Positions 17,838 through 34,726 of a stretch of 64,000 nt of DNA are shown piece after piece. The DNA is taken from NCBI RefSeq assembly GCF_016405965.1, contig NZ_JAEFCD010000005.1, positions 124,001 through 188,000 on the forward strand. Direction: 5' to 3'. The notes beneath the pieces were generated by a model, which saw only the letters and a program-made list of their open reading frames with translations, was not told where the DNA came from and searched no databases. A program made the position numbers and the translations under genes. This DNA comes from Alteromonas sp. IB21 (GTDB lineage: Bacteria; Pseudomonadota; Gammaproteobacteria; Enterobacterales; Alteromonadaceae). Every line of letters begins with the position of its first letter. The stretch's first letter is position 1.

Positions 17838-18884
17838 CTATTTTAAATTCAACGTTTTAACGCCATTCGCGGTAACAGCAATTGTTGCGCCGTTAAATTG
17901 CGTTGCGTTTAGAAGCGCTGCTTTATCTTTGATTTGAGATGCAACAATGCCTTCATCTGCGACACAATCGGAAGGGTTAGCATATGGGTCGCGCATACTG
18001 GTCGGTAGAGGACGCGCTGCGGTTATCATCATGCCATTGTTTCCTAGGGCATAAACTGTCGATTCAGATCCAATAAGAATGGAATTAAGCGTACTATTGG
18101 AGCAGGTTTGGACATATTCCCACTCGCCTTGATTGCGATTGACGAAAATATTCCCGCGTAAGCCTACCGCTAACACAGTAGTCTCATCTAACGGTTTAAT
18201 GTCAAAAAATGAACCGGTGTAATCAACATAATAGCGCTCCCACGACTCACCCATGTTAGTGCTCTTTGCTAATAAGCCCGCCTCACCCGCCATATATAAC
18301 GTATTTCCATCAAGGGTGACTCGATTTAAATGTGGTAAAATTGATTCTAATTCCTGCTGGTAAAAGGCCTCGTCTTCCTTTCGAATATCTTCTAGATACT
18401 CTTGGTCCATGGGGTCTAGAAGACTAGCATGCCTTTCAGCATTCCAAGACTTTCCGCCATCTTGCGTACGATAAAACAAGCCATAAGCACCAGTCGCGAT
18501 GCCATGCAACTCATCAAAAAACAAAACATCTAAAAACGGGCGCTGAAGATCGGGTTGATAGTTTTGTATCTCCCACGTTGCGCCTCTATCTGCAGAATGA
18601 AGAATGACAGCGTCGTGACCCACTGCCCAAATGTTCTCGCCCACAACCGTAGCAGCCGTAAGCGTTGATTGCGTTGGCACGACTTTTTGATTAAATGCCT
18701 TGCCATCTTCTGACACTAATACATGACCCCGTTCACCGACAATAACGACAAATGAATCAGCGTTTATGTCCAAAAGAACAGATTGCTCGACCAATGGTGC
18801 CATGAATGCTTCTTCGGCAAGTGCAGTTGTTGAATAACTCACTGCGAAAGTGGCGGCAATGCACGCTGCAATGGTTCTTTTCAT
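17838..18884 (-). CDS. YCF48/BNR-repeat exported beta-propeller protein
   Basis: 348 residues. A signal peptide (1-23, ending ALA) is followed by repeated propeller strands such as ILHSADRGATWEIQNY, LFYRTQDGGKSWNAER and LLAKSTNMGESWERYY. The SxDxGxxW pattern is the BNR/Asp-box signature of the YCF48/HCF136 family. In plants and cyanobacteria that family helps photosystem II assembly; here a periplasmic scaffold or assembly role for the neighbouring envelope proteins is inferred. It lies between DUF1329 and the RND permease, after a 79-base gap with a strong hairpin. The GGGGGA ribosome binding site is 10 bases before the ATG. Confidence 0.85.
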   Translation of the reverse strand: MKRTIAACIAATFAVSYSTTALAEEAFMAPLVEQSVLLDINADSFVVIVGERGHVLVSEDGKAFNQKVVPTQSTLTAATVVGENIWAVGHDAVILHSADRGATWEIQNYQPDLQRPFLDVLFFDELHGIATGAYGLFYRTQDGGKSWNAERHASLLDPMDQEYLEDIRKEDEAFYQQELESILPHLNRVTLDGNTLYMAGEAGLLAKSTNMGESWERYYVDYTGSFFDIKPLDETTVLAVGLRGNIFVNRNQGEWEYVQTCSNSTLNSILIGSESTVYALGNNGMMITAARPLPTSMRDPYANPSDCVADEGIVASQIKDKAALLNATQFNGATIAVTANGVKTLNLK

Positions 18885-33101: not shown

Positions 33102-34223
33102 TTATTTAAGTATCGTGCGCAATGCTGCAAGGCAATGGTCAATATTACGAGGCTTGCACGCATAGCCCATAAGTCCAATTCGCCACACCTTACCAGCGTG
33201 CTCACCTAATCCAGCGCCTATTTCCAAATTGAAATCTTCAAGTAGTTGTTTGCGTGCTGCCGCGTCATCCACTCCGTCTGGTATCTTAACCACATTTAGC
33301 TGTGGTAAACGATAAGCGCTATCAACGGTAAGATCCAGGCCAAGGTCACTTAAACCCAGGGCAAGTTTTTCATGGCCTAACGCGTGGCGCTTCCACGCAT
33401 TTTCCAAGCCCTCTTCTTTTAGTATGAGAAGAGCCTCATACATCGCGTACATGCTGTTAACGGGAGCGGTATGATGATAGGCACGTTTCGCGCCCTGGCC
33501 CCAATAGCCAACGATTAAGTTCATATCTAAAAACCAGCTTTGCACTTTTGTTTTCCGGTTTTGGATGACATGTACCGCTTTGTCACTGAAGGAAACAGGT
33601 GATATACCCGGTACACAGCTCAAGCATTTTTGCGAGCCGGAATAAATAGCGTCAATGCCCCATCCGTCTACGTCTAACTCAATACCTCCAAGGGAGGTAA
33701 CTGCATCAACGATGCTCAAACAATCGTACTTCTGCGCCAATTCACAGAGAACTTTTGCCTCATTACGAACACCGGTTGAAGTCTCTGCATGAACAAACGC
33801 CAGAACCTTGATATCAGGGTTAGCTTTAAGCGCGTCCTCGACTTGGTTCAAGTCAGTTTGTTCTCCCCAGGTATTGTTTACGGTGATGGCTACCCCCCCG
33901 CAACGCTCTACATTTTCAACCATGCGATTACCGAATACCCCATTTATGCAAACGAGTACTTTATCGCCCGGCTCCACTAAATTAACGAAGCAAGCTTCCA
34001 TTCCTGCAGAGCCCGGCGCTGAAATTGGCATAGTTAGGGCATTTTCAGTTTTAAACGCATACTGGAGTAACTGCTTGGTCTGATCCATTAATTCTATGAA
34101 CAACGGGTCTAAATGCCCAAGCGTCGGCCGAGACATAGCATTTAGAATGCGGGGATTTACATCGGATGGTCCTGGTCCCATCAAAGTTCGTTCAGGGGGA
34201 ATAAAAGTAGAAAACGAATGCAT
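33102..34223 (-). CDS. Class V aminotransferase, alanine/serine-glyoxylate type
   Basis: 373 residues of fold-type I PLP enzyme. The N-terminus has LMGPGPSDVNPRIL and the middle HAETSTGVRN (cofactor phosphate region) and VDAVTSLGGIELDVDGWGID. The Schiff-base lysine is in SGSQKCLSCVPGISP (about residue 196). Close relatives use glyoxylate as amino acceptor and alanine or serine as donor (AGXT/SgaA type). Which donor is used cannot be told. The gene is isolated; a TGACGT-AA-ACGTCA palindrome lies 61 bases upstream and may be its operator. Confidence 0.92.
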   Translation of the reverse strand: MHSFSTFIPPERTLMGPGPSDVNPRILNAMSRPTLGHLDPLFIELMDQTKQLLQYAFKTENALTMPISAPGSAGMEACFVNLVEPGDKVLVCINGVFGNRMVENVERCGGVAITVNNTWGEQTDLNQVEDALKANPDIKVLAFVHAETSTGVRNEAKVLCELAQKYDCLSIVDAVTSLGGIELDVDGWGIDAIYSGSQKCLSCVPGISPVSFSDKAVHVIQNRKTKVQSWFLDMNLIVGYWGQGAKRAYHHTAPVNSMYAMYEALLILKEEGLENAWKRHALGHEKLALGLSDLGLDLTVDSAYRLPQLNVVKIPDGVDDAAARKQLLEDFNLEIGAGLGEHAGKVWRIGLMGYACKPRNIDHCLAALRTILK

Positions 34224-34297: not shown

Positions 34298-34577
34298 TAC
34301 TACAAGGTTATAAAAATGGGACAAGCACCTGTTATGAAGATAAATATTGTGAATGACTAGATTTAATCGGAGTTGAATTTAGATATATAAGTTGCTTCGT
34401 GATAGGCCCTATCGTACAAATTAATAAATGAACGAAGCCAACAAGTTTAGTGCTATACACATCGGACCAGATGTTATATCACTGAAATTATTTATAAATT
34501 TAGGTGAATTACGTGCTTTTCTGCCCTGTAAGATAAAATTCACAATGAAATTGTTTATAAAATAAACAAAGCTATTC

Positions 34578-34583
34578 TATAAT
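34578..34583 (+). promoter_or_regulatory. -10 box of a probable small-RNA promoter
   Basis: A consensus TATAAT lies 7 bases before the inferred RNA start near 34590. The -35 is weak: TTTATA at 34554-34559 with an 18-base spacer, or TTGTTT at 34551 with a long spacer. No plus-strand gene follows. Confidence 0.5.
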
Positions 34584-34589
34584 AATGGT

Positions 34590-34691
34590 CTGTTTAGTAG
34601 ATTTTACTTAAACTCTCCCTGTAAAAGTTAGCGCACGGCTCAGCAATGAGCCATTCCCCTAGGCCCGGAACGATTGTTCTGGGCATTTTTT
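34590..34691 (+). ncRNA. Candidate trans-acting small RNA, about 100 nt
   Basis: A consensus -10 box is followed by a short AU-rich stretch and then two hairpins. The first (34637-34652) is a 6-bp stem closed by a GCAA tetraloop of the stable GNRA type. The second (34663-34684) is a 9-bp stem with one G-U pair and a GATT loop, followed at once by ATTTTTTAT, a textbook rho-independent terminator on the plus strand. No protein gene ends here: both neighbours are on the minus strand and no plausible reading frame fits. I do not recognise the family. The single-stranded part around aactctccctg could pair with ribosome binding sites (GGGAG). Ends are inferred. Confidence 0.55.
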
Positions 34692-34726
34692 ATGGGCGAT
34701 GAAAAAACGAGAGCGTCACACCTCCG

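What the first reader, a model, noticed from the sequence alone, without database searches (positions are those of the whole stretch)
34578..34691. Free-standing small RNA candidate with GNRA hairpin and strong terminator
In a 503-base gap with no plus-strand gene, a consensus -10 is followed by a 6-bp stem with a GCAA tetraloop and then a 9-bp terminator stem with a T6 tail. Terminator orientation is plus, opposite to both neighbouring genes, so it cannot be the end of either. The unpaired segment contains ctctccctg, complementary to GGGAG-type ribosome binding sites as found in front of DUF1302 and bkdB in this window.
Basis: partly seen in the sequence, partly recalled or inferred. Interest (0 to 1): 0.62.

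Follow-up and report, generated by a model that had tools for sequence, protein, structure and literature searches.

The report
SdsR stress small RNA in Alteromonas

Summary
The anatomy described is present at the stated place and the feature is real, but it is not an unknown RNA. It is SdsR (RyeB), Rfam RF00111, at 34601-34692 (+), 53.9 bits against a cut-off of 38. It is single copy in its genome, present in 24 of 24 genus members searched and in 147 of 295 genomes sampled from the order. Named near-identical loci point to Alteromonas. The -10 is of the sigma-S type; rpoS and hfq are present. The ctctccctg element is conserved in the genus (TCTCCC in 20 of 27 leaders); enteric-type SdsR carries CUCCC in its central hairpin instead. 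Its use as an anti-ribosome-binding-site seed is not shown: bkdB is the best of 346 start regions, but only 14 of 24 orthologues beat shuffled leaders, and DUF1302 is weak. A new member of a known family, of modest interest.

The parts
34553..34559 (+). GTTTATA, conserved upstream element overlapping the -35 position (TTTATA, 18 nt before TATAAT)
   Evidence: columns conserved in 90% or more of the 24 genus rows; promoter scan
34577..34583 (+). extended -10 CTATAAT, sigma-S type (C before TATAAT; motif recalled, not from a call)
   Evidence: best site scores 12 or more of 13 in 77 of 89 homologues (26 of 27 in the genus) against 18.7% of shuffles
34590..34626 (+). SdsR 5' leader from the inferred start site (about 34590), lineage-specific
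   Evidence: start inferred 7 nt after the -10; leaders differ between genera and families
34613..34621 (+). CTCTCCCTG, C/U-rich element of the leader
   Evidence: TCTCCC in 20 of 27 genus leaders against 0.18 expected from shuffles; unpaired probability 0.83
34601..34692 (+). extent of the Rfam RF00111 SdsR_RyeB match (model positions 1-100 of 100)
   Evidence: 53.9 bits, gathering score 38, E 4.4e-7 for the window
34627..34636 (+). GTTAGCGCAC, single-stranded SdsR core
   Evidence: invariant in the 24 genus rows; TAGCGCA invariant or 90% or more in 89 rows
34637..34652 (+). central hairpin GGCTCA-GCAA-TGAGCC
   Evidence: 6 pairs, 98.5% of cells paired in 89 rows; GNRA loop in 26 of 27 genus rows
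34653..34661 (+). ATTCCCCTA, conserved single-stranded linker, candidate seed
   Evidence: alignment A5; unpaired probability 0.83
34663..34691 (+). intrinsic terminator, 9-bp stem, GATT loop, T6 (Hfq-type 3' tail by analogy)
   Evidence: 7 of 9 pairs with two-sided changes
33102..34223 (-). class V aminotransferase, conserved upstream neighbour (diverging)
   Evidence: Pfam PF00266; found in 26 of 27 genus loci, the other being a contig end
34727..35251 (-). hexapeptide-repeat, gamma-carbonic-anhydrase-like protein, convergent neighbour whose mRNA 3' end may run antisense over sdsR
   Evidence: PF00132; best NCBIfam model gamma carbonic anhydrase, 172.9 bits, below its cut-off of 250; no minus-strand terminator found before sdsR in 25 of 26 genus loci
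   Evidence: best leader duplex of 346 start regions, -17.1 kcal/mol; orthologues

Best explanation
It is the Alteromonas orthologue of SdsR (RyeB), a trans-acting small RNA of about 102 nt. Shown by sequence: family membership, conserved structure, a conserved sigma-S-type -10, an intrinsic terminator, conserved gene neighbours, and the presence of rpoS and hfq. Inferred from SdsR of enterics: RpoS drives it in stationary phase or stress, Hfq binds its U-tail, and it regulates mRNAs by base pairing. In Alteromonas the pairing regions most likely are the exposed leader element CUCUCCCUG, which could cover G-rich ribosome-binding sites (the E1-beta gene called bkdB the best candidate found), and the conserved linkers GUUAGCGCAC and AUUCCCCUA. 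The target assignment is the weakest step.
For: Rfam RF00111 53.9 bits against a cut-off of 38. The same search rings in E. coli and in no other of 14 control genomes. One copy in the own genome; 24 of 24 genus genomes counting the own, 30 of 40 in all; 147 of 295 of the order, 136 over the cut-off. 97.7% of cells pair, against 83.7% after shuffling and at most 45.4% when slid; 193 cells have two-sided changes, against 46.8 shuffled and at most 48 slid. Sigma-S-type -10 in 77 of 89. Of 40 genomes, 30 of 30 with an SdsR match have rpoS over the cut-off, while 3 of the 10 without SdsR lack it. Hfq in 25 of 25 genomes searched. Enteric SdsR is RpoS-dependent and Hfq-bound (PMC10954441, passages; PMC4911921, passages).
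Against: No transcript evidence was available. SdsR and RyeB do not occur in the main text of the Alteromonas macleodii Te101 primary transcriptome (term search; supplements not readable here). blastn of the 92 bases against E. coli genomes finds nothing even at E 10, so the tie to enteric SdsR rests on the covariance model and on intermediates. The number of pairs with two-sided changes is not telling by itself: 9, but the -3 slide also gives 9. Two known enteric targets show no significant pairing here: yeaG 0 of 13 genus genomes with leader or linker, tolC 0 of 7 with leader, core or linker. Flanking genes differ from those reported for enterics (PMC5913331 and PMC6610125, passages).
Confidence: 0.94

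Rival explanations
1. It is SdsR by descent, but with a re-targeted front end. The C/U-rich element sits in the leader instead of the central hairpin and is the main seed, aimed at ribosome-binding sites, so the Alteromonas regulon differs from the enteric one.
For: CUCCC is in the central hairpin of 15 of 18 enteric-type (f18) rows and 0 of 27 genus rows; in the leader of 21 of 27 genus rows and 0 of 18 enteric-type rows; in both in 0 of 89. TCTCCC in 20 of 27 leaders against 0.18 expected. bkdB start region best of 346 in the own genome and better than shuffled leaders at p 0.05 or less in 14 of 24 orthologues. No significant yeaG or tolC pairing.
Against: 10 of 24 bkdB orthologues are not significant, and p values are not corrected for the 346 regions searched. 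The G-rich site lies in the end of the upstream E1-alpha coding frame and is itself a ribosome-binding site, so it is conserved for other reasons. No enrichment of start regions as a class beyond controls. 5 of 27 genus rows lack CTCC and TCCC in the leader. Outside the genus CUCCC is in only 5 of 44 non-enteric leaders. Rows are related, so shuffles overstate significance.
Confidence: 0.35
2. The locus includes an antisense partner like RyeA/SraC. Here the 3' end of the convergent gamma-carbonic-anhydrase-like or thioesterase mRNA, rather than a separate small RNA, runs over sdsR and quenches it.
For: A convergent gene stop lies about 12-152 bp past the sdsR terminator in the 26 of 27 genus loci that hold one, and 25 of these 26 have no minus-strand intrinsic terminator by my scan before sdsR. 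In E. coli RyeA covers all of sdsR and each lowers the other (PMC6610125, passages).
Against: RF00101 SraC_RyeA scores 32.7 on the minus strand, below its cut-off of 37, and mostly mirrors SdsR. Lacking an intrinsic terminator is ordinary here: only 42 of 112 convergent gene ends in the sampled own genome have one, against 16 of 234 windows inside genes. No conserved minus-strand promoter was sought; other kinds of termination were not tested.
Confidence: 0.25
3. It is only the end of some unannotated plus-strand transcript, or a chance hairpin and terminator with no RNA gene.
For: Promoter-like and terminator-like sites taken alone are at chance level.
Against: Family match, presence in 24 of 24 genus genomes, covariation and a conserved -10. 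No plus-strand ORF of 40 aa or more overlaps 34590-34692.
Confidence: 0.02

Closest known systems
SdsR / RyeB (Rfam RF00111) of Escherichia coli and Salmonella
   Same: Same covariance model over its whole length, same core UUAGCGCACGG, same two stems, same linker AUU(C/U)CCCU, sigma-S-type -10 at a median of 47 (enteric-type) and 51 (genus) nt before the core. E. coli genomes hold one f18 sequence (L033) at 98% identity.
   Different: Leader differs from the enteric leader; central loop is GNRA instead of the C/U-rich enteric loop; CUCCC element in the leader; flanked by an aminotransferase and convergent gamma-CA-like or thioesterase genes instead of yebY and pphA (the enteric neighbours from PMC5913331 and PMC6610125, passages).
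SraC / RyeA (RF00101), the antisense partner in enterics
   Same: The minus strand scores as its mirror (32.7 bits).
   Different: Below the cut-off of 37; no dedicated promoter identified; any antisense RNA would be the 3' end of a neighbouring mRNA.
Aln1a-c small RNAs of Alteromonas macleodii (CsrB/C analogues)
   Same: Intergenic small RNAs of the same genus; their authors tie them to rpoS through CsrA (PMC5864184, passages).
   Different: Those are CsrA sponges rich in A(N)GGA motifs, from another locus. SdsR is a base-pairing RNA by family.

Membership tests
SdsR_RyeB (RF00111) | covariance-model score over the curated cut-off | tested here: met
   53.9 bits against 38, model positions 1-100 of 100
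SdsR_RyeB (RF00111) | central hairpin and Rho-independent terminator conserved with compensatory changes | tested here: met
   97.7% of cells paired, 193 cells with two-sided changes, 89 rows
SdsR_RyeB (RF00111) | transcription dependent on RpoS | tested here: inconclusive
   sigma-S-type -10 conserved and rpoS present in each of the 30 SdsR-bearing genomes of 40; dependence itself is an experiment
SdsR_RyeB (RF00111) | binds Hfq | not testable with these tools
   hfq present in 25 of 25 genomes; U-rich 3' tail present
SdsR_RyeB (RF00111) | regulates targets such as yeaG and tolC by pairing | tested here: inconclusive
   no significant predicted pairing: yeaG 0 of 13, tolC 0 of 7; duplex energies only, mRNA accessibility not modelled
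SdsR_RyeB (RF00111) | enteric-type 5' leader | tested here: not met
   leader differs; the model tolerates it, and three f9 members have almost no leader
SraC_RyeA (RF00101) | score over the curated cut-off on the antisense strand | tested here: not met
   32.7 against 37

The most novel reading that the evidence does not exclude
Alteromonas SdsR is a re-wired stress regulator. The convergent gene's mRNA tail replaces RyeA as the antisense quencher.
Probability: 0.15. Interest if true: 0.55.

Novelty: new member of a known kind. Interest (0 to 1): 0.3.

Why it matters
[quoted passage not shown] Finding it in each Alteromonas-group genome searched (24 of 24) and in about half of the sampled order, with a constant core but variable leaders, separates the shared part (core, linker, terminator, sigma-S-type promoter) from the part that changes between lineages.

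Tried and rejected
Leader hairpin (UUUUAC...GUAAAA or UUGCA...UGCAA around the C/U element): 73.3% of cells pair against 40.6-62.6% when slid (shuffled mean 70.9%), and one column pair switches G-C/A-U, but only 2 of 7 pairs have two-sided changes and RNAalifold predicts no pair. Left open, not claimed.

General anti-ribosome-binding-site action: leader mean -6.97 kcal/mol over 346 start regions, against -6.39 in internal windows and -6.33 (sd 0.47) for shuffled segments; the core and the linker show no excess over shuffles either. In one search the means were spoiled by one failed duplex, so one search replaces them. DUF1302 as target: weak (-9.0 kcal/mol). Ycf48-like gene at 17838-18884: the linker pairs at -16.2 kcal/mol, but only in 10 of 24 genomes (an eleventh at -13.7), so not a genus-wide target. 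gamma-CA-like start region: strong pairing in some genus loci only. yeaG: its start region ranks among the 12 best leader partners of the own genome (-13.5 kcal/mol), but no genome of 13 beats shuffled start regions at p 0.05. tolC: no signal.

Second RF00111 matches: G017:C153 (34.3 bits, under the cut-off) lacks the SdsR core and looks like a chance terminator; G023:C123 is a contig-end copy of the same sequence.

Rows left out of the 89-row alignment: L027, L029, L030, L090, L091, L098 and L099, fetched but not recognised by my core pattern; L061 (contig-end copy); and the matches that were not fetched. The -10 was chosen as the best site in 95 bases, so some positions far upstream may be wrong. 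Mobile origin: no exact match to the core pattern in viral contigs, no blastn match of this locus in the plasmid collection.

Full report
What is there. Scanned as mere patterns, promoter and terminator are at chance level, so the question had to be settled by homology.

What it is. Against the 4227 Rfam families the window has one match over a curated cut-off: RF00111 SdsR_RyeB, 34601-34692 plus strand, 53.9 bits against 38, the whole model matched. The own genome has one copy. Among 40 genomes 30 match, including all 24 of the genus counting the own. In a sample of 295 genomes of the order 147 match, 136 over the cut-off. In the 14 control genomes the family rings only in E. coli. Plain blastn of the 92 bases against E. 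coli genomes finds nothing, so it is the covariance model and the intermediate relatives that carry the tie.

Structure. 97.7% of cells pair, against 83.7% in shuffles and at most 45.4% with slid partners; 193 cells have two-sided changes, against 46.8 in shuffles and 11 to 48 when slid. The bare number of pairs with such a change does not discriminate (9, and 9 for the -3 slide). The GNRA loop holds in 26 of 27 genus rows but is not a family trait: 0 of 18 enteric-type rows and 10 of the other 44 have it.

Promoter and regulation. The best -10 of sigma-S type (CTAyaCT, consensus recalled) scores 12 or more of 13 in 77 of 89 rows, against 18.7% of shuffled upstream regions. In the genus a GTTTATA element over the -35 position is conserved in 90% or more of rows. 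rpoS over its cut-off is found in 37 of 40 genomes. The three without it (G025, G029, G030) have no SdsR match, and all 30 with SdsR have rpoS; seven genomes have rpoS but no SdsR match. hfq is in 25 of 25. That SdsR needs RpoS and binds Hfq is known from enterics (PMC10954441 and PMC4911921, passages read); here it is inferred.

The leader. Between the -10 and the core the sequence is lineage-specific. In the genus it carries TCTCCC in 20 of 27 rows, against 0.18 expected from shuffles, though the rows are related. Enteric-type rows have CUCCC in the central hairpin in 15 of 18 and in the leader in 0; the genus has it in the leader in 21 of 27 and in the hairpin in 0; among the other 44 rows 5 have it in the leader and none in the hairpin; no row of 89 has both. 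I read this as a possible move of a pairing element, and mark it as inference. A leader hairpin around the element is only weakly supported.

Targets. In 464 kb of the own genome 347 genes were listed mechanically and 346 start regions used. Tested with each genome's own leader, 14 of 24 orthologues beat shuffled leaders at p 0.05 or less and 10 do not. Start regions as a class are not enriched beyond controls. The known enteric target yeaG is among the 12 best leader partners in the own genome, but in 0 of 13 genus genomes does leader or linker beat shuffled start regions at p 0.05. tolC shows nothing significant in any of 7 genomes. Target assignment therefore stays open.

Neighbourhood. The class V aminotransferase lies upstream in 26 of 27 genus loci, and gamma-CA-like and/or thioesterase genes lie convergent downstream in 26 of 27; each exception is a contig end. 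In the 26 loci with a convergent gene its stop is about 12-152 bp beyond the sdsR terminator, and 25 show no minus-strand intrinsic terminator before sdsR by my scan, so that mRNA may run antisense over sdsR as RyeA does in E. coli (PMC6610125, passages). This is suggestive only, because just 42 of 112 convergent gene ends in the sampled genome have such a terminator, and the RyeA model stays below its cut-off.

Literature. Papers holding both Alteromonas and SdsR: 1, a general review on infectious disease (listing only). Alteromonadales and RyeB: 0. The Te101 transcriptome paper reports 127 chromosomal small RNAs without naming SdsR or RyeB in its main text (passages). The library holds open-licence papers only, and three main SdsR papers asked for were not held, so I do not claim that SdsR in Alteromonas is unpublished.

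Verdict. Ordinary as to kind, with a genus-specific leader worth an experiment.

Noticed in passing
window 34553-34559: GTTTATA upstream of the sdsR -10 is conserved in 90% or more of genus rows, more than a weak -35 would seem to need; it could be an activator site.
   Followed up: partly
window 34613-34627 and 34686-34699: The leader CUCCCUGUAAAAG can pair with the U-run plus the bases just past the terminator (UUUUUUAUGGG...), as predicted folds of several genus members show; a read-through transcript could fold the leader onto the U-tract.
   Followed up: no
window 17838-18884, start region: The ribosome-binding region AGGGGGAAUGG of a Ycf48-like gene matches the SdsR linker CAUUCCCCU almost perfectly, but only in 10 of 24 genus genomes.
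   Followed up: partly
L081-L083 (family f9): In these three genomes a sigma-S-type CTACACT lies only 17 nt before the SdsR core, so the RNA would have almost no leader.
   Followed up: no
L060:1558-1665 (G017:C153): Sub-threshold RF00111 match (34.3 bits) that holds a strong terminator hairpin but not the SdsR core.
   Followed up: yes
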